Below are positions 3,358 to 10,704 of a stretch of DNA of 64,000 nucleotides, piece by piece. How positions within the stretch are numbered: position 1 is the first letter of the stretch; every line of letters starts with the position of its first letter. Source of the stretch: Microbacterium pumilum. GTDB taxonomy: Bacteria > Actinomycetota > Actinomycetes > Actinomycetales > Microbacteriaceae. Location of the stretch: contig NZ_BAAAOH010000001.1 in the NCBI RefSeq assembly GCF_039530225.1, forward strand, positions 1,736,001 to 1,800,000, given 5' to 3'. The notes below the pieces were generated by a model. The model did not search any database. It saw only the letters and a program-made list of their open reading frames with translations, and had not been told where the DNA came from. Position numbers and translations under genes: made by a program.

Positions 3358-3745
3358 GCGTCACCGAGGCGACCCGTGCGGAGCGTATCGGCGCGACACC
3401 CGATCCCATCCTGCCGAGTCATCCGGATGTCCCACCCCGCATTCGCGACTCCCCGTGACGAGATCGAGGAGATCCTCGTGGCGTCCTTCTACCAGCCGGA
3501 CCGGGACACGCTGGTCGGGCTCGCGGCAGACGGTCCATCCGCGCCGATCGCGCTCGTCCCGTACGTCCCCGAGTTCACGGAGCTCACACGCACGGCGCGC
3601 AACGACGCGTTCCGAGATCACCGGGGGAGTCTCGAGACGTTGCCCGAGCGGTGGAGCCACTTCGTCGACGGGCCGCGCCTGCGTCCCGATCTGTCGGTGC
3701 TCGCCGTCGAGGACGGGCGGGTCGTCGCCTTCGCGCCGGTGACTA
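3358..3745 (+). pseudogene. Relic of a GNAT-family N-acetyltransferase
   Basis: From the ATG at 3427 the plus strand encodes about 105 residues. They include T-A-R-N-D-A-F-R-D-H-R-G-S and R-L-R-P-D-L-S-V-L-A-V-E-D-G-R-V-V-A-F, which resemble the start of the second domain of two-domain GNAT enzymes of the mycothiol-synthase type (A-R-N-E-A-F-x-D-H-W-G-S, then F-R-P-D-L-S). A TAGGCTGAGCGC sequence like other leaderless starts here lies at about 3349, but the frame behind it soon ends. The similarity stops abruptly at about 3745, where the antisense of the convergent acyltransferase begins, so the acetyl-CoA-binding core is missing. I read it as a truncated, frame-broken remnant. Confidence 0.5.
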
Positions 3746-5851
3746 ACGAACCTGCGGTGCCGGGTGGAGACGCAGGTTCTCGCGCACCCGCATCTCGAGC
3801 TCGTACTGACGCTGCGCCCGTTCCTTCTCGATCTGATCGATCGTCGTCGCCACGGTGTCGGCGAAGACGTGGCCGCCCGAGGCGCCGGGGTGGATCTGAT
3901 CGCCCGCCAGCAAGTCGGTGTGGGCGCTGATCGCGCCCGACCAGTCGGCGACGACGACGCCCGGGTGCGATGACGCGAAAGCGCTGAGGTCCGCGTTCAC
4001 CTCCGGGATCCAGTCGCGCGGGGCGAAGGCGTTCACCAGCACCACGCTGCGGTCGGGCCCGGCGATCGCCGTCATGCGCTCGAGCGCGTCGAGGCTGACA
4101 GGTCCGTTCGTGCCGAGTGCGACGACCACGAATTCGCGCAGCTCTCCGTTCGCGGCAAGGCTCTCGACGATGCCGGGGCCCGCCCATGTCGAGCGCGACA
4201 CCGCGGCGTCGATCTGGATTCCGGGAAAGCGCTCGAGCAAGGCGGGCGCCGACGCCAGCATGACCGAGTCGCCTACGGCGGAGATCTCGTCGCCGGTGAT
4301 CGGTGTCGGCGACGGTGTGGGCTCGGGGTCCGCGGATGGCGTGGACGGCGCGGCCTCAGCAGTCGCCGTCGGGGTCGCACTGGGAGCGGGCGTCGCGCTC
4401 GGAGTCGCCGACGCTGTCGCGGCCTGCTGGTTCGCCTGGTCGAGCGCGACCTGCCCCGCCGCGACGGCTGCCTCACCACCCGATGTCGCCGGTGCCGCGG
4501 CGATGCCGGCGGCCGTACCCCACACCACCACGACGGCCACCGCCGACAGCCCGAGGGCGCGCAGTCGCGACCGTGGACCGCGTTGCAGCTGCGAGACCAT
4601 CCGCGAGAAAGTGCCGCGGAAGCCGTACCGGCGCACGGGCGTCTCGACGAAGCGGTACGACAGCTCGGCGGCTGCGATGGTCAGACCCAGCACGCCGACA
4701 CCGATCCAGGTGGGCACACCGGACCGCGTGCCCGCGCCACGGATGCCGGCCATCGCGAGCACGAGCAGCGGCCAGTGCCACAGATAGATCCCGTACGAGC
4801 GCTCGCCGATCCAGCGCAGCGGCGGAGCATCCATCCCCCGCGCGTAGGCCGAACCCGGCCACGTGGCCGTGGCGATCACGATGACGCTCAGGATGCTGGC
4901 CGCCAGGAGGGTACCCGGAAAGGTGATGCCGCCGTCAGCGGGCACCATCATCGCGCTGGCGACGATGCCCGCCACGGCGACCACGCCCACGACCGATACG
5001 GCGACGCGCGTTCCGCTGCGGTCCATCCACGCGGGGCGGAACAGGGACGGTGCGGGCTTGGGGGTCGGCGCCGTCTTCGGCTGCACGATCGTCCAGCCCG
5101 GTGGCAGGGTGACGGAGGGAACCATGACCGGAAGTCGAGCCGCATCCTCGGAGGGTGCAGGCGCGGCGGACCGCCGAAGGATAGGCCCGAGCACGAATGC
5201 GAGCGCGATGCCCACGAGGATGCCGAACGAGTGTGTGTCGGTGCCGAAGTAGACGCGAGTCAGGTCGCCCCCCGCGCTGACCAGAGAGGCCATCCAGGCC
5301 GCGGAGGCCGCCGCGAGAGCGAGGGCAGCGGCCGCGCGACCCCACGCGCGCGGGATCAGGAGGAACAGCGGCAGGATGAGGGGCCACACCACGTAGAACT
5401 GCTCTTCGACCGCGAGGGACCAGAAGTTTCGGAAGAGCTCGGGTGCCCCACTGCTGAAATAGCCCGTGTCGCCCGAAATCGAGATCCAGTTGTAGCTGAA
5501 CGTGAACGCGCCGACCACCTGCGCGCCCAGGTTCAGGAGCACGTCACCGCCGATGATCCACGCCGCGCTCGCACAGACCGTCACGACGAGGGTGAGCGCC
5601 GGCAGCAGGCGCCGGGCGCGTCGTCGCCAGAAGTCTGCGAGTGCGATTCGGCCGGTCATGGCCTGCTCGCGAAGCAGGAGGCTGGTGATGAGGAAGCCGC
5701 TGATCACGAAGAACACATCGACGCCCAGGAAACCGCTCGGCAGAAGGGGCGGGAACAGGTGGTAGACGACCACCAGGATCACCGCGAGCGCGCGCAGGCC
5801 ATCGAGCCCCGCGTATCGGACGGGGCTGGTTTTCGGCGCGTTCGACGTCAT
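3743..5851 (-). CDS. Membrane O-acyltransferase with C-terminal SGNH domain (OatA/OafA-like)
   Basis: Probably transfers acetyl groups across the membrane to a surface glycan. Of 702 residues, about 13-380 are an acyltransferase-3 domain with some ten membrane helices and the conserved start R-Y-A-G-L-D-G-L-R-A-L-A-V with catalytic-type His31 (V-V-Y-H-L-F). A Pro/Ala/Thr-rich linker follows, then an extracytoplasmic SGNH-hydrolase-like domain with G-D-S at 527-529 (Ser529), G-T-N-G near 581 and D-x-x-H (Asp651, His654). This architecture is known for peptidoglycan or polysaccharide O-acetyltransferases. ATG 5851 was chosen because upstream sequence is unconserved and Arg/Pro-rich. It converges on a GNAT relic. 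The substrate is unknown. Confidence 0.88.
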   Translation of the reverse strand: MTSNAPKTSPVRYAGLDGLRALAVILVVVYHLFPPLLPSGFLGVDVFFVISGFLITSLLLREQAMTGRIALADFWRRRARRLLPALTLVVTVCASAAWIIGGDVLLNLGAQVVGAFTFSYNWISISGDTGYFSSGAPELFRNFWSLAVEEQFYVVWPLILPLFLLIPRAWGRAAAALALAAASAAWMASLVSAGGDLTRVYFGTDTHSFGILVGIALAFVLGPILRRSAAPAPSEDAARLPVMVPSVTLPPGWTIVQPKTAPTPKPAPSLFRPAWMDRSGTRVAVSVVGVVAVAGIVASAMMVPADGGITFPGTLLAASILSVIVIATATWPGSAYARGMDAPPLRWIGERSYGIYLWHWPLLVLAMAGIRGAGTRSGVPTWIGVGVLGLTIAAAELSYRFVETPVRRYGFRGTFSRMVSQLQRGPRSRLRALGLSAVAVVVVWGTAAGIAAAPATSGGEAAVAAGQVALDQANQQAATASATPSATPAPSATPTATAEAAPSTPSADPEPTPSPTPITGDEISAVGDSVMLASAPALLERFPGIQIDAAVSRSTWAGPGIVESLAANGELREFVVVALGTNGPVSLDALERMTAIAGPDRSVVLVNAFAPRDWIPEVNADLSAFASSHPGVVVADWSGAISAHTDLLAGDQIHPGASGGHVFADTVATTIDQIEKERAQRQYELEMRVRENLRLHPAPQVR

Positions 5852-5992
5852 GAGTTTCTCGGCTGAGGGGGGAGCCCTCATTCTACGGGGGGGCGTGATC
5901 CGCATCGATCCTGAACACGCGCGGCGAGGGCCGCGGTCGCATGCGGGGAATGTGACGCCGCGGCGCTCTATCTGCGGAGATGCCGCGGGCGC

Positions 5993-5998
5993 TAGTCT
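5993..5998 (+). promoter_or_regulatory. -10 box TAGTCT of the cyclase/channel operon
   Basis: TAGTCT matches the TANNNT boxes used repeatedly in this window. It touches the GTG at 5999, so transcription would begin near 6005. This argues that translation starts downstream, at the TTG at 6071 behind GAGGAG. Confidence 0.5.
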
Positions 5999-6070
5999 GT
6001 GCATACCTCGCCAGGCGAAGGTCCTGGGGCCCTTCTCATGCCATGGGCGAGTCCTTCGAGGAGCACAGAC

Positions 6071-8248
6071 TTGTCCGACCCGTCCGCAGCGACCGCGGCA
6101 CCGACGCCCTGGGTCGGCAAGCCGCGCCGGCGGCGGCGCGCCGGACTTTCGATCTACTCGATACTGCTCATCATGCTGCTGTCGGTCAGTGTGCTCTCGA
6201 GCATCGTGGTCGGAATCATCGGCTACATCAACGGCACCGAGGCGCTGCGGACGATCGCCTACGATCGGCTGGTCGAGATCCGAGAGAACCGCAGCCGAGA
6301 GGTCGCGCAGCTGTTCGCGACGATCGAGAACTCCGTGAGCTTGAGCGCGCTGAACGACACGAGCAAACAGGCGGCACGCGAGTTCGCCGACGGGTTCGCC
6401 GAGCTCGAGAAGCAGCAGCTCAGCGCCGGTGAATCCGCCGCGCTCAACGTCTACTACCGCGACACGTTCGCAACCGATCTCTCCGAGGCGACGGGTGAGG
6501 AGGTCGACGGGTCGGCCTTCGCTCCTCGCGGCGGCGCCGAGGCCTACCTGCAGTACAACTACGTCATCCCGTATGCGGACTGGGAAGAGGCGATCCAGAA
6601 CGAGGACGCGGGCGACGGCAGCGCCTGGTCGGCCGCCCACGCGAAATACCACGACTACTTCCGTACGATGACGCAGCTGCAGGACTTCGAGGACGTCCTC
6701 ATGCTCGACACTCAGGGCAATGTCGTCTATTCCGCCTACAAGGGCGTCGACCTCGGTACCAACCTCTTCGACGGGCCGTACCGGCTCTCGAATCTCTCGA
6801 CCGCCTACCGTCAGGCGATGGACCAGAACATCGTGGGCGATGTCGTGATCGCAGACTTCGCGCCCTACAGCCCGAGTCTCGGCGCGCCGGCAGGCTGGGC
6901 GGTGACTCCGATCGCCGACGACGGCGAGATCATCGGCGCCCTCGCGATCGAACTGCCGATCGACCGGATCAACGACGTCATGACGGTCGGCGGCGAGTGG
7001 AACGCGAACGGTCTCGGCGCCACCGGCGAGACCTACCTGGTCGGCCGCGACGATCTGATGCGGTCCATCTCGCGCCTGCTCATCGAGGATCCGGTCGCGT
7101 ATCAGGAGGACGCCGTCAAGGCCGGGCTCGCGCCTGCCGCGGCCGCGCTGAGCGCGCAGAACGGCGACACACTGCTGCAGCAGACGATCACGGGCGACGC
7201 CGTGACGCGCGCACTCTCGGGCGAGGACGGCACGCTCCTCGAGCGCGACTACCTCGGTCGCGACAGTCTCACGGCCTACGCTCCGCTTGCCGTCGACGGG
7301 CTGAACTGGGCGATCGTCGCACAGGAGACCTCGGCAGAAGCACTCGTGCCCGTCGAGGACTTCACGCGCAACCTCATCCTCTCCACCGCCGGCATGATCA
7401 TCTTCGTCTGCCTGCTCTCGCTCGTGCTAGCCCAGATCTTCGTGCGGCCGCTCCGCCGGCTCAAGTCCGCCGCGCAGCGGATCGCCGCGGGCGAGGAGGG
7501 TATCCAAGTCGATGCCGGATCCAGCGACGAACTCGCGGATGTCGCGACGGCGTTCAACGACATGAGCCGGAGCCTGGAGATCAAGTCCCACCTCATCGAC
7601 GAGCAGGAGCGAGCGAACGAGCGCCTCATCCTGTCGTTCATGCCGGAGGGGATCGCGAACCGCTACAAGCACGGCGACGAGGCGATCACCCAGGACAGCG
7701 ACGACGTCACGGTCGTCTTCGCCGACATCGTCGGGTTCGAAGAGCTCGCCCTCTCGATGTCGTCCGAAGATGCCGTGGCCCGCCTCAACGATCTGGTGCG
7801 CAGCTTCGACGAGGCCGCCGAGCGCCACGGCGTCGAGCGCGTGCGCACCACGCGCCAGAGCTACCTCGCCAGCTGCGGGCTCGCGACCCCCCGGGTCGAC
7901 AACGCGCGGCGCGCCGTGGAGTTCGCGATGGAGCTCGAGACCATCCTCGATCGCTATTCGACGCAGCAGGGCGTGCAGCTGGGGCTTCGCGCGGGCCTCG
8001 ACTCGGGCAAGGTCACGAGCGGTCTGATCGGTCGCGCGCGGGTCGTGTACGACATGTGGGGGGATGCCGTGAACCTGGCCTTCCGCGTGCAGGGCGACTC
8101 GAGCGAACCCGGCATCTACATCACGCAGCGCGTCGCCGACAGGCTCCCCGAATCGGTGTCCGTGCGTCCCGTCGGTGACGTCGAGACGCAGAACGGCACC
8201 CAGCGCGTCTGGAAGGTCGAGGCCGCCGTCCCCGTCGTGGAGGGCTGA
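6071..8248 (+). CDS. Membrane receptor with HAMP and class III adenylate/guanylate-cyclase-like domain
   Basis: A predicted transmembrane sensor of 725 residues. A basic N-terminus and first helix (L-S-I-Y-S-I-L-L-I-M-L-L-S-V) are followed by a large extracytoplasmic region like double-Cache sensors (about 60-430), a second helix, a HAMP linker (about 450-505) and a class III cyclase domain (about 545-715). First-metal Asp552 (V-F-A-D-I-V-G-F) and the transition-state Asn/Arg motif (W-G-D-A-V-N-L-A-F-R) are kept. The usual K-T-x-G-D segment reads R-T-T-R-Q, so the second metal Asp is Gln596 and the base-specifying Lys is Arg592. TTG 6071 is chosen for its GAGGAG site and upstream promoter; GTG 5999 is the alternative. 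It precedes the channel gene by 8 bases. Confidence 0.85.
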   Translation: MSDPSAATAAPTPWVGKPRRRRRAGLSIYSILLIMLLSVSVLSSIVVGIIGYINGTEALRTIAYDRLVEIRENRSREVAQLFATIENSVSLSALNDTSKQAAREFADGFAELEKQQLSAGESAALNVYYRDTFATDLSEATGEEVDGSAFAPRGGAEAYLQYNYVIPYADWEEAIQNEDAGDGSAWSAAHAKYHDYFRTMTQLQDFEDVLMLDTQGNVVYSAYKGVDLGTNLFDGPYRLSNLSTAYRQAMDQNIVGDVVIADFAPYSPSLGAPAGWAVTPIADDGEIIGALAIELPIDRINDVMTVGGEWNANGLGATGETYLVGRDDLMRSISRLLIEDPVAYQEDAVKAGLAPAAAALSAQNGDTLLQQTITGDAVTRALSGEDGTLLERDYLGRDSLTAYAPLAVDGLNWAIVAQETSAEALVPVEDFTRNLILSTAGMIIFVCLLSLVLAQIFVRPLRRLKSAAQRIAAGEEGIQVDAGSSDELADVATAFNDMSRSLEIKSHLIDEQERANERLILSFMPEGIANRYKHGDEAITQDSDDVTVVFADIVGFEELALSMSSEDAVARLNDLVRSFDEAAERHGVERVRTTRQSYLASCGLATPRVDNARRAVEFAMELETILDRYSTQQGVQLGLRAGLDSGKVTSGLIGRARVVYDMWGDAVNLAFRVQGDSSEPGIYITQRVADRLPESVSVRPVGDVETQNGTQRVWKVEAAVPVVEG

Positions 8249-8256
8249 GCACGCCG

Positions 8257-9702
8257 ATGGCCGACATCTTCTCGCAGCCGTGGTTCTGGCCCGCGGTCAT
8301 CGTGTCGGTGGGGCTGCCCGTGGCGCTCATCGGGCTCACCGAGCTGCACAATGCCCTCGCGCGCCGGGGCAGCCGGGCGGCCCCGATCATCCTGATGGTG
8401 CGCAACTACCTCGTGCCGGTGGCGGCGATCCTGGTGCTGATGGCGCAGCCGGGGGCGTGGCAGGGGCAGGGCACGTGGCCGAGGGTGGTGGCGACGGTCT
8501 TCGGACTGCTCGTCATCGTCGTCGTGATCAACGCGATCAACCACCTCGTGTTCCACCGCGGTGAGAAGGGGTCGTGGCGCGACAGGTTCCCGACGATCTT
8601 CAGCGACCTCATCCGCTTCGTCTTCATCATCGTGGGCATCGCGCTGCTGTTCTGGTGGGTGTGGGGGACGGATGTCGCGGGCGTCTTCGCCGCGCTCGGG
8701 GTGACGTCGATCATCGTCGGCCTGGCGCTGCAGAACGCCGTCGGCTCGATCGTGTCAGGACTCTTCCTCATCTTCGAAGCGCCGTTCGAGCTCGGCGACT
8801 GGATAGAGACCAGCGAGGACACCGGCTCCGCCCGCGGCCAGATCGTCGAGGTGAACTGGCGCGCCATCCACATCGACACCGGCAACGGGATCGTCATCAT
8901 GCCGACCGCTGAGCTCGCCGAGGGGTCGTTCACGAATCTCTCCCGCAGCCCCGATCCGTACGCCGCGACACCGGAGGTCACGTTCGGCACCGACGACCCG
9001 CCGGGGCGGGTGCGTGAGATCCTCGTCTCGGTCGCGCGAGACATCCCGTTGGCCTCGCCGGATCGCGAGCCGAACGCGAAGAGCCTCGCCGGTTCGCGGT
9101 TCGCCGTCGCGATCCCGCTGCAGAATCCCGGCGACCACGACGCCGTCATCGACACCTTCCTGACGCGGCTCTGGTATGCGGCGCGCCGCGCAGATCTGCA
9201 CCTCGACGGCGACATGACGGACGACTGGCGGACGCCGGCCCGGCTGCAGGACGCACTCCGACAGCTGGCCGCACCGCTCAGCCTCAAGCCCGGTGACACG
9301 GACGCGCTCGCGGCGCACACGCGCCTGGAGCGCTACTGCGCCGGGGAGTCGATCCTGCGGCCCGGTACGGTGCCGGTGGAGACCCGGTTCATCCTCAGCG
9401 GCACCGTCGTGCTCGGCATCCCGACCGAGGACCAGGGATTCGTGCAGGTCGCCCAGCTCGGCAAAGACGACGCGATCGGCATCACTGCGCTGTCGCGGAC
9501 GCAGACCATCTCTCGCGCTGTGGCGACAAGCGACGTGGATGTCGTCGTCTTCCCGATCGAGGTGCTCGACGACATCGTGCGAGCGCACCCGGTGGTCGCG
9601 CGAGAGCTCGTCCGCGAGAGCGAGAACCGCCTCCAACGCGCGCGGATCGCACTGAGTGCGGTCGGCGAGCCGCTGCCCTTCGGCCGCCAGACGCTCGGCT
9701 GA
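8257..9702 (+). CDS. MscS-type channel with C-terminal cyclic-nucleotide-binding domain (bCNG family)
   Basis: A 481-residue mechanosensitive-channel relative. Hydrophobic helices in the first 150 residues end in a Gly/Ala-rich pore helix (G-L-A-L-Q-N-A-V-G-S-I-V-S-G-L-F) and the MscS beta domain (F-E-L-G-D-W-I). Residues about 350-465 form a CRP/CNBD-like domain (R-F-I-L-S-G-T-V-V-L-G, then I-S-R-A-V-A-T). In the phosphate-binding cassette the usual G-E pair reads G-I-T, while the Arg is kept. MscS-CNBD proteins are known as the bacterial cyclic-nucleotide-gated channel family. The gene starts 8 bases after the cyclase-like receptor, so the two are very likely a signalling pair; which ligand binds is open. 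Confidence 0.87.
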   Translation: MADIFSQPWFWPAVIVSVGLPVALIGLTELHNALARRGSRAAPIILMVRNYLVPVAAILVLMAQPGAWQGQGTWPRVVATVFGLLVIVVVINAINHLVFHRGEKGSWRDRFPTIFSDLIRFVFIIVGIALLFWWVWGTDVAGVFAALGVTSIIVGLALQNAVGSIVSGLFLIFEAPFELGDWIETSEDTGSARGQIVEVNWRAIHIDTGNGIVIMPTAELAEGSFTNLSRSPDPYAATPEVTFGTDDPPGRVREILVSVARDIPLASPDREPNAKSLAGSRFAVAIPLQNPGDHDAVIDTFLTRLWYAARRADLHLDGDMTDDWRTPARLQDALRQLAAPLSLKPGDTDALAAHTRLERYCAGESILRPGTVPVETRFILSGTVVLGIPTEDQGFVQVAQLGKDDAIGITALSRTQTISRAVATSDVDVVVFPIEVLDDIVRAHPVVARELVRESENRLQRARIALSAVGEPLPFGRQTLG

Positions 9703-9747
9703 TCCATCCCGCGACCGCCGACCGACGGCCGATGGATGCCGCGGCAA

Positions 9748-9753
9748 TAGGCT
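9748..9753 (+). promoter_or_regulatory. -10 box of leaderless truA
   Basis: TAGGCT followed by six bases and the GTG start at 9760, so transcription probably begins at or next to the start codon. There is no Shine-Dalgarno sequence. Confidence 0.6.
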
Positions 9754-9759
9754 GAGGCC

Positions 9760-10629
9760 GTGCGCATCCGGCTCGACATCGCCTACGACGGCACGAACTT
9801 CCGCGGCTGGGCTCGCCAGCCGGGTTTGCGCACGGTGCAGGGCACCCTCGAGGACGCGCTCGCGCGAGTGCTCGGCGGCGCCCCGCGACTCGTGGTGGCA
9901 GGACGCACCGACTCGGGAGTGCACGCCACAGGCCAGGTGGCGCACATCGATCTGGACGACGGCCAGCAGGAACGGCTCGCCGCACGTCGCTCGCGCGCCG
10001 GCTCCGAGGCCGAAGGCGGCTCGGCGAGCGATCAGGCGATCGCCGTGCTCGCGGCGCGGATCTCGGGTGTCGTCGGCGCGTATCCCGACGTCGCGGTGCG
10101 CCGATCGTCGCTCGCACCGTCGGGCTTCGATGCGCGCTTCTCAGCCGTATGGCGCCGGTACGAGTACCGTGTCGCCGATCGGGCGTCGGGCTACGACCCC
10201 CTCGAGCGACATCGCACGACGAACGTCCGTGCGTCGCTGGACGAGACCGTGATGGATGCGGCGGCCCGCTCTCTCATCGGGCTGCACGATTTCGCGGCGT
10301 ACTGCAAGCCGCGCGACGAGGCGACGACGATCCGCACCCTGCTCGAGTTCGACTGGCATCGGGACGCCGATGGGGTGATCGTCGCGAACGTCAAGGCCGA
10401 CGCGTTCTGCCACAGCATGGTGCGCGCTCTCGTCGGTGCCTGCGTCGCGGTGGGCGACGGCAGGCTGGATGCGGCCGACCTCGTGGACATCCGCGACACG
10501 GGGGAGCGCGTCCCCGAAGTGAAGGTGCTCGCCGCGCGCGGCCTGACGCTCACCCAGGTCGGGTATCCGGCGGATGACCTGCTCGCCCAGCGCGCCGAGC
10601 AGACCCGCAACCGCCGCGACCGGGAGTGA
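9760..10629 (+). CDS. truA: tRNA pseudouridine(38-40) synthase TruA
   Basis: TruA converts uridines 38-40 of the anticodon stem to pseudouridine. The 289-residue protein has the family start R-I-R-L-D-I-A-Y-D-G-T-N-F-R-G-W and the catalytic aspartate in A-G-R-T-D-S-G-V-H-A-T-G-Q-V-A-H. Further family blocks are R-R-Y-E-Y-R-V and F-C-H-S-M-V-R-A-L-V-G. A low-similarity insert lies around residues 68-90. The GTG start is leaderless behind TAGGCT. In most Actinobacteria truA lies between rplQ and rplM; here both neighbours have been pushed away by inserted blocks of about 6.5 and 34 kb. Confidence 0.95.
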   Translation: MRIRLDIAYDGTNFRGWARQPGLRTVQGTLEDALARVLGGAPRLVVAGRTDSGVHATGQVAHIDLDDGQQERLAARRSRAGSEAEGGSASDQAIAVLAARISGVVGAYPDVAVRRSSLAPSGFDARFSAVWRRYEYRVADRASGYDPLERHRTTNVRASLDETVMDAAARSLIGLHDFAAYCKPRDEATTIRTLLEFDWHRDADGVIVANVKADAFCHSMVRALVGACVAVGDGRLDAADLVDIRDTGERVPEVKVLAARGLTLTQVGYPADDLLAQRAEQTRNRRDRE

Positions 10630-10698
10630 GCTGCGGTTGATCGCTAGGGAGTCGCTGTGCATCCGTCAACCGGATACCCACGCGAAACGTGCGCGCCC

Positions 10699-10704
10699 TA
10701 GGCT
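10699..10704 (+). promoter_or_regulatory. -10 box of a leaderless start at 10713
   Basis: TAGGCT, eight bases before the ATG at 10713. It supports that ATG over the in-frame upstream ATG at 10689, which would lie before the transcript start. Confidence 0.55.

What the first reader, a model, noticed from the sequence alone, without database searches (positions are those of the whole stretch)
6071..9702. Cyclase-like receptor paired with a cyclic-nucleotide-type MscS channel, both with altered key residues
The genes are eight bases apart. The receptor keeps the first metal Asp and the Asn/Arg catalytic motif but has R-Q in place of G-D and Arg in place of the base-selecting Lys. The channel's CNBD lacks the usual Glu of the phosphate-binding cassette. 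Paired changes suggest a co-evolved, non-standard nucleotide signal or a direct protein-protein gating system. MscS-CNBD channels are known (bCNG family), but a receptor-cyclase partner with this degenerate site is, to my knowledge, not described.
Basis: partly seen in the sequence, partly recalled or inferred. Interest (0 to 1): 0.72.

Follow-up and report, generated by a model that had tools for sequence, protein, structure and literature searches.

The report
Dead-cyclase receptor tied to ion channel
A bacterial membrane sensor whose signal-making enzyme part has lost its active site sits, in every relative checked, right beside an ion channel whose signal-binding part has also lost its key residue, which suggests that the sensor works the channel by touch rather than through a small messenger molecule.

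Summary
Window 6071-8248 encodes a dCache-HAMP receptor with a class III cyclase-fold domain; 8257-9702 encodes an MscS channel with a cyclic-nucleotide-binding-fold domain (CNBD). The receptor has Arg for the base-selecting Lys and R-Q for G-D; the CNBD lacks its cassette Glu. Relatives show that this is a family trait. Of 304 channel loci examined, all 302 with upstream sequence carry the receptor directly upstream. Among 269 distinct pairs, 0 keep the Lys, 7 the second metal Asp, 0 the full catalytic set, and 1 channel has the Glu. Of 17 other cyclase domains from the phylum, 16 have the whole set. The degenerate cyclase domain is under strong purifying selection (dN/dS about 0.11). A distant branch encodes receptor A - channel - receptor B, with other catalytic residues lost and again no Glu. 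So the letters R-Q and G-I-T matter little; missing chemistry is the constant. Best reading: a receptor-operated channel in which a catalytically dead cyclase dimer acts on a ligand-free CNBD by contact. Contact is inferred; a coevolution test was inconclusive. The gene pair itself is not new: it is common in Mycobacterium (probably Rv2435c/Rv2434c).

The parts
6071..8248 (+). Receptor gene: dCache - TM - HAMP - class III cyclase-fold domain; TTG start at 6071 (725 aa), longer GTG ORF from 5999
6191..7348 (+). Extracellular dCache sensor region (residues about 65-450 of the 749-aa ORF)
   Evidence: PF02743 E 2.7e-8 over residues 222-441, under its curated cut-off; AlphaFold2 model with pLDDT mostly about 90 there
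7427..7579 (+). HAMP domain (residues 477-527)
   Evidence: dN/dS 0.052
7691..8218 (+). Cyclase-fold domain, catalytically incomplete (residues 565-740)
   Evidence: Foldseek to Rv1625c 7yz9, TM 0.85 normalised by the target
7724..7726 (+). D576, equivalent of the first metal Asp (kept)
7844..7846 (+). R616 in place of the base-selecting Lys
7853..7858 (+). R619-Q620 in place of Gly-Asp (second metal Asp lost)
8051..8086 (+). D685 (base Asp), N692 and R696 (transition-state Asn/Arg), all kept here
8257..9702 (+). Channel gene: extra N-terminal helices - MscS pore and beta domain - alpha/beta domain - CNBD
8737..8946 (+). MscS beta domain (residues 161-230), preceded by a conserved MscS-type pore helix (G-L-A-L-Q stretch)
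9289..9621 (+). CNBD (residues 345-455)
   Evidence: PF00027 32.9 bits, cut-off 27.5; Foldseek to CRP/GlxR
9478..9486 (+). G408-I409-T410: phosphate-binding cassette position where Glu is missing

Best explanation
The two genes encode one receptor-operated channel. A signal binds the extracellular dCache domain; HAMP passes the movement to a cyclase-fold dimer that no longer makes a cyclic nucleotide; this dimer contacts the CNBD-fold domain of the neighbouring MscS-type channel and shifts its opening. Shown here: gene linkage, family-wide loss of the catalytic set and of the cassette Glu, intact folds by prediction, and purifying selection on the degenerate domains. Inferred: lack of activity, signal direction, physical contact and gating.
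For: Linkage: 302 of 302 channel loci with upstream sequence (304 examined, 2 at contig ends) have the receptor directly upstream; distance from receptor stop to the start of the channel alignment -8 to +39 nt, median 3, in 269 distinct pairs. Chemistry lost: of 269 distinct pairs, Lys 0, second metal Asp 7, full Asp/Asp/Asn/Arg set 0, cassette Glu 1; 16 of 17 other cyclase domains of the phylum have the whole set and the 17th differs only at the Lys. No half-site is kept throughout either: metal-A Asp 193, Asn 153, Arg 143 of 269. Not decay: median dN/dS 0.106 for the cyclase domain and 0.151 for the CNBD over 138 close pairs; 10 positions of the cyclase domain are at 93% or more in pairs and rare in the 17 others. 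In a separate branch, receptor A - channel - receptor B (4 loci with both receptors in view), all 4 A receptors lost the first metal Asp, Asn and Arg, and the Glu is present in 0 of 124 such channels. Tree: pair, A and B receptors together stand apart from the 17 others, SH-aLRT 96. Of 13 full-length receptor matches in 246 phylum genomes, 12 lie next to a channel and 1 runs off a contig end. In the window's genome this channel is the only PF00027 match at E 0.001, and the three best of ten HTH_Crp_2 matches are IclR/MarR-like.
Against: No direct evidence of contact: a coevolution test on 270 pairs (effective number 114 at 80% identity, 604 columns) gave no usable signal, within or between the proteins. 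The base Asp is kept in 266 of 269 and the first metal Asp in 193 of 269, so nucleotide binding is possible. In the window's own clade Arg is kept in 120 of 120 and Asn in 114 of 120. Loss of the cassette Glu alone is not special: 3 of 8 MscS-CNBD channels read from plasmids have Ala there (8 of the 60 records listed of 296). Two of three B receptors have an Asp in the second-metal column. MscS channels are heptamers and class III cyclases dimers (recalled), a symmetry mismatch. The one Glu-bearing channel (L278) sits beside one of the 7 receptors with the second Asp.
Confidence: 0.6

Rival explanations
1. The receptor still makes a nucleotide, slowly or of a non-standard kind, and the altered CNBD senses it.
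For: The window's clade keeps metal-A Asp, base Asp, Arg and mostly Asn, and R-Q is invariant in the 120 listed proteins. The nearest fold is an active class IIIa cyclase.
Against: No replacement is constant: position 620 takes eleven different residues in 269 pairs, and Asn and Arg are lost in 43% and 47%. A receptors of the distant branch lost the first metal Asp instead. A new chemistry would need a conserved new site.
Confidence: 0.13
2. The receptor is dead but senses a nucleotide made by other cyclases, or modulates another cyclase by forming mixed dimers; the channel responds to cAMP through an atypical pocket.
For: Base Asp kept in 266 of 269. The window's genome holds two other cyclase genes: a response-regulator-linked one in whose alignment both metal Asp and the Asn/Arg are present, and a 1280-residue frame with two cyclase matches. 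Some CNBD folds bind ligands without the Glu (recalled).
Against: The Lys is never kept, and neither the metal half-site nor the Asn/Arg half-site is conserved, so a mixed active site would often not be built. The CNBD is the most variable of the segments measured (mean entropy 2.01 bits; the dCache region was not in that measure).
Confidence: 0.17
3. The CNBD fold has been kept for an unrelated small ligand (as in FNR-like regulators), and the receptor regulates the channel only through expression or localisation.
For: The CNBD matches FNR-type regulators weakly (E 0.0026 to 0.009), and Glu-free CNBD folds are common among regulators (recalled).
Against: In the cassette stretch 404-423 only Gly408, Leu412, Arg414 and Ala423 exceed 95%, which is no clear ligand motif; the constant thing is the neighbouring receptor.
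Confidence: 0.1

Closest known systems
Rv2435c - Rv2434c of Mycobacterium tuberculosis and relatives across Mycobacterium
   Same: Same gene order and domain make-up in the genus: 202 of 248 genomes of genus g95 carry the channel. g95 is taken as Mycobacterium because two of its contigs have the lengths of a named Mycobacterium and a named Mycobacteriaceae record. Rv2435c is called an adenylate cyclase with a double Cache domain (PMC4822843, one passage) and grouped with Rv1625c (PMC3961136, two passages). Adjacency of the two is taken from their consecutive locus numbers.
   Different: The tuberculosis genes themselves were not identified among the loci here. The passages seen treat Rv2435c as an adenylate cyclase and Rv2434c as a membrane protein, possibly nucleotide-binding, in cAMP signalling (PMC11205783, four passages); none treats the two as a receptor and its channel.
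bCNG channels (MscS pore plus CNBD; Caldwell and others 2010, seen only as a reference in PMC4560390)
   Same: Same channel architecture.
   Different: By its title that work describes cyclic-nucleotide-gated channels; this family lacks the cassette Glu in 268 of 269 and comes with a receptor gene attached.
Class IIIa adenylyl cyclases such as Rv1625c/Cya
   Same: Closest bacterial solved sequence and fold of the cyclase domain.
   Different: Rv1625c has a six-helix membrane part (recalled) and the complete catalytic set; this receptor has dCache-HAMP and an incomplete set.
KCNH-type eukaryotic channels with a CNBD fold that does not bind cyclic nucleotides (recalled)
   Same: A CNBD fold kept as a protein-interaction or intrinsic-ligand module.
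   Different: Unrelated pore and no cyclase-fold partner.

Membership tests
Class III nucleotidyl cyclase (as a fold) | Guanylate_cyc domain and cyclase fold | tested here: met
   PF00211 8.5e-34; Foldseek to Rv1625c on a predicted model
Class III nucleotidyl cyclase (as an enzyme) | Both metal Asp, plus transition-state Asn and Arg | tested here: not met
   Second metal Asp is Gln here; 0 of 269 pairs have the full set
Class III nucleotidyl cyclase (as an enzyme) | Base-selecting Lys/Asp pair of adenylyl cyclases | tested here: not met
   Lys 0 of 269, Asp 266 of 269
Class III nucleotidyl cyclase (as an enzyme) | Measured cyclase activity | not testable with these tools
   Needs purified protein
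bCNG channels | MscS pore and beta domain joined to a CNBD | tested here: met
bCNG channels | Gated by cyclic nucleotide | not testable with these tools
   Needs electrophysiology
Cyclic-nucleotide-binding CNBD (CRP/PKA type) | Glu of the phosphate-binding cassette | tested here: not met
   Not in the window; 1 of 269 pairs, 0 of 124 A/B-type channels
Cyclic-nucleotide-binding CNBD (CRP/PKA type) | Arg of the phosphate-binding cassette | tested here: inconclusive
   Arg at 420 here, 44 of 269 in that column; the register of this loop is unsure
Rv2435c-Rv2434c pair | Same two genes in the same order in Mycobacterium | tested here: met
   exact locus identity not shown, two primers of PMC3961136 matched none of 381 loci

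The most novel reading that the evidence does not exclude
A bacterial ligand-operated channel complex in which a whole second-messenger pathway (cyclase plus cyclic-nucleotide sensor) has been turned into a mechanical one: a dead cyclase dimer gates a ligand-free CNBD by contact. It exists in a one-receptor form (Microbacteriaceae, Mycobacterium, Rhodococcus) and a two-receptor form (A - channel - B, perhaps a mixed dimer).
Probability: 0.5. Interest if true: 0.82.

Novelty: new variant of a known kind. Interest (0 to 1): 0.63.

Why it matters
If right, proteins annotated as adenylate cyclases in many actinobacterial genomes, Mycobacterium among them, do not make cAMP, and their real output is an ion or osmolyte flux. 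It would give bacteria a receptor-gated channel outside the known ligand-gated families, show how a diffusible messenger can be dropped in favour of direct contact, and give the question of what gates bCNG-type channels a natural case in which the nucleotide is unlikely. It also warns against counting cyclases by Pfam match.

Tried and rejected
Coevolution between receptor and channel by mean-field DCA: a first script was killed for memory; the second ran, but 270 pairs are worth 114 independent ones for 604 columns, and the top pairs within each protein did not look like contacts either, so nothing is claimed.

Gene fusion as proof of contact: one locus (L111, Leifsonia aquatica) reads receptor and channel as one 1234-residue ORF. 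The cyclase end before the join is unlike that of relatives, so a frameshift or assembly error is likely; not used as evidence.

Exact co-variation of R-Q with G-I-T: rejected, because both sites are lost nearly everywhere and the letters vary.

Glu loss as a mark of the family: weakened by my own control, in which 3 of 8 plasmid MscS-CNBD channels also lack it.

Promoter/terminator scan of 5700-10700: one promoter-like match inside the channel gene (shuffles mean 0.2) and one terminator-like match (mean 0.8); not informative. No tRNA in the window.

Papers: 'pseudocyclase' is in no held paper. Searches joining MscS, mechanosensitive, bCNG or Rv2434c/Rv2435c with cyclase and CNBD terms listed no title about this pair as a channel system; most listed papers were not opened. 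The 2004 survey PMC2447327 is held as abstract and references only, but the search index counts Rv2435c 10 times, Rv2434c 3 times and 'inactive' 4 times in it, so it may already note the degenerate site. McCue 2000 is not held. This limits any claim of novelty.
Full report
WHAT IS THERE. The window lies in a 4.45-Mb genome in one contig whose receptor is closest to Microbacterium proteins. At 6071-8248 (+) lies a receptor gene and eight bases later, at 8257-9702 (+), a channel gene. Residues are numbered from the GTG ORF at 5999; subtract 24 for the likely TTG start at 6071. The receptor has a dCache region, HAMP and a Guanylate_cyc domain; the channel has the MscS beta domain and a cNMP_binding domain. 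truA follows at 9760; of 80 named relatives 13, all Microbacterium by title, have truA within the 4-kb flank, so truA is a local neighbour, not part of the pair.

ACTIVE SITES. Against solved Rv1625c the receptor keeps metal-A Asp (D576), base Asp (D685), Asn (N692) and Arg (R696), but has R616 for the base-selecting Lys and R619-Q620 for Gly-Asp, so the second metal ligand is gone. Names and roles of these positions are recalled from the cyclase literature. Predicted models keep the folds: receptor mean pLDDT 82.5, Foldseek to Rv1625c 7yz9 with TM 0.85 normalised by the target; channel 79.0, matches to MscS and, over the CNBD, to CRP and GlxR. The channel keeps the MscS pore stretch.

HOW CONSTANT. 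The 120 receptor proteins listed (of 1822 hits, the window's own copy included) are at least 72% identical and all keep R616, R619 and Q620. To go wider I searched whole genomes with the channel: 22 of 149 in the family, 32 of 393 in the class, 66 of 247 in the own genus and, with a g95 channel, 202 of 248 in a second genus, g95. Named relatives include Microbacterium, Leifsonia, Agromyces, Frigoribacterium, Plantibacter, Curtobacterium, Herbiconiux, Agreia, Subtercola, Rhodococcus, Mycolicibacterium and Mycobacterium (best 80 of 505). Two contigs of g95 have the lengths of named records, 86,938 bases (Mycobacterium sp. NS-7484) and 10,282 bases (a Mycobacteriaceae MAG), so g95 is taken as Mycobacterium. 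I did not fetch every match, and the list was itself cut.

LINKAGE. In 304 channel loci a script found the receptor directly upstream on the same strand in 300. Of the other four, L104 has it too (a domain-order artefact of the script), L111 reads both in one ORF, and L130 and L214 start at a contig end. So 302 of 302 with sequence to look at. From receptor stop to the start of the channel alignment the distance is -8 to +39 nt, median 3, in the 269 distinct pairs: the genes overlap or nearly touch. Some genomes entered by more than one search; the 269 are distinct in aligned sequence.

RESIDUES IN 269 PAIRS. Lys equivalent: R 257, H 9, Q 2, N 1, K 0. Gly equivalent: R 158, H 92, others 19. 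Second metal Asp: N 127, G 50, Q 37, E 19, S 16, D 7, A 5, R 4, K 2, T 1, H 1. First metal Asp: D 193, E 70, G 4, N 1, Q 1. Base Asp: D 266, E 3. Asn: N 153, S 66, D 37, others 13. Arg: R 143, Q 107, others 19. Full Asp/Asp/Asn/Arg: 0. Cassette Glu: 1 (L278). As a check on the reading, 17 other cyclase domains from 16 loci (non-pair matches that were given a locus; four further matches were not read) gave D-K-G-D-D-N-R in 16 and D-R-G-D-D-N-R in one. L278, the one channel with Glu, pairs with one of the seven receptors with the Asp; by chance that is 7 in 269, and that receptor still lacks the first metal Asp and the Lys.

NOT DECAY. Nei-Gojobori dN/dS over 138 close receptor pairs (80-97% identical, among 190 full receptors), medians: cyclase domain 0.106, HAMP 0.052, dCache 0.149, channel beta domain 0.038, channel helices 0.104, channel alpha/beta domain 0.165, CNBD 0.151. 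Ten positions of the cyclase domain are at 93% or more in pairs and in under 15% of the 17 others: L532, Q536, M548, Y556, A606, R616, L623, S674, L676, G705. They are candidates for a new contact surface.

A DISTANT SECOND FORM. A receptor search over 246 genomes of the phylum (only 4 candidates per genome scored, so orphans could be missed) gave 13 full-length matches: 12 lie next to a channel gene and one runs off a contig end. Six of the 13 belong to three genomes with receptor A - channel - receptor B, one of them split over two contigs. Further searches added two more such loci; the form was found in 2 of 66 and 3 of 198 genomes of the two classes, the starting ones included. Both receptors are in view in four loci. 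The 4 A receptors read keep the Lys, the Gly (Asp in 3, Ser in 1) and the base Asp but have lost the first metal Asp, Asn and Arg; the 3 B receptors read have lost the first metal Asp, Lys, base Asp, Asn and Arg, though two of them have an Asp in the second-metal column. Their channels lack the cassette Glu: 0 of 124 (120 proteins listed of 816 hits plus the 4 query sequences, so a few are counted twice; whether those 120 have receptor neighbours was not tested). Source names among the 120 point to Euzebyales, Ilumatobacter and Acidimicrobiia. In a quick tree the pair, A and B receptors form three clades that together stand apart from the 17 others (SH-aLRT 96-99; the order among the three is unresolved and two B branches are long). 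Different residues lost on different branches with the same gene pairing is what selection for a non-catalytic role would leave.

CONTROL FOR THE CHANNEL. From 296 plasmid records with a match (60 listed) I read eight MscS-CNBD channels of Rhizobiaceae, Azospirillum and Caballeronia: five keep Gly-Glu, three have Ala, and none has a cyclase-like ORF within about 3 kb. So Glu loss alone is not remarkable; near-total loss together with an obligate dead-cyclase neighbour is.

THE HOST. The genome has three cyclase genes: this one, a response-regulator cyclase whose alignment shows both metal Asp and Asn/Arg, and a frame with two cyclase matches. Its only PF00027 match is this channel; the three best of ten HTH_Crp_2 matches are IclR or MarR regulators, the other seven were not examined. 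M. tuberculosis does have a CRP (PMC3938503, passage), so absence of CRP is not a family rule.

MECHANISM. Step 1, signal to dCache: inferred from domain type. Step 2, through HAMP to the cyclase fold: inferred; HAMP is strongly conserved. Step 3, no cyclic nucleotide made: strongly indicated by residues, untested. Step 4, contact with the CNBD fold: inferred from linkage, joint loss and selection. Step 5, channel gating: inferred; the pore stretch is intact. I put 0.6 on the whole chain, higher (about 0.9) on the receptor being without useful cyclase activity and on the two genes acting together.

AGAINST. The coevolution test was uninformative. The base Asp and often the first metal Asp persist, so the fold may still bind a nucleotide, and the window's own clade keeps Asn and Arg as well. 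Glu loss occurs in unrelated MscS-CNBD channels. A dimer against a heptamer (recalled) needs explaining.

LITERATURE. PMC4822843 (one passage) calls Rv2435c an adenylate cyclase with a double Cache domain; PMC3961136 (two passages) groups it with Rv1625c; PMC11205783 (four passages) calls Rv2434c a membrane protein possibly in cAMP signalling; PMC3938503 (three passages) lists Rv2435c among cyclases by expression; PMC1592074 and PMC4886424 (passages) do not mention the pair. PMC2447327: abstract and references only. bCNG papers: seen only as references in PMC4560390.

VERDICT. A real, conserved, two-gene system whose chemistry appears to have been removed on both sides. The parts are known kinds; the arrangement as an obligate pair without catalysis is the new variant.

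Noticed in passing
L365 3872-9833; L366 4034-10004; L370; L372: Receptor A - channel - receptor B operons in two other actinobacterial classes, with two differently degenerate cyclase domains; possibly a mixed dimer that recalls the two halves of mammalian adenylyl cyclases.
   Followed up: partly
L111 1718-5422: Leifsonia aquatica record in which receptor and channel read as one ORF; the cyclase end before the join is unlike its relatives, so a frameshift or assembly error is likely.
   Followed up: partly
whole genome G000: No CRP-type regulator seen (only the three best HTH_Crp_2 matches examined) although a cyclase with its catalytic residues is encoded; the only recognised CNBD is this channel.
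   Followed up: partly
Several genomes carry two to four channel matches (G574 has 4; own-genus genomes G502, G766, G799, G889, G941 and G966 have one close and one about 43% identical copy).
   Followed up: no
L381 700-4206: Azospirillum sp. B510 plasmid protein annotated as an ABC transporter substrate-binding protein also holds an MscS pore and a CNBD with Gly-Glu: perhaps a sensor fused to a channel.
   Followed up: no
L278 (channel and receptor): The only pair of 269 whose channel has the cassette Glu also has the second metal Asp, but not the first metal Asp or the Lys.
   Followed up: partly
window 3743-6652 (-): Acyltransferase_3 gene on the other strand; its long ORF runs into the receptor start, so its true start probably lies lower, near 5850, making the two genes divergent.
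   Followed up: no
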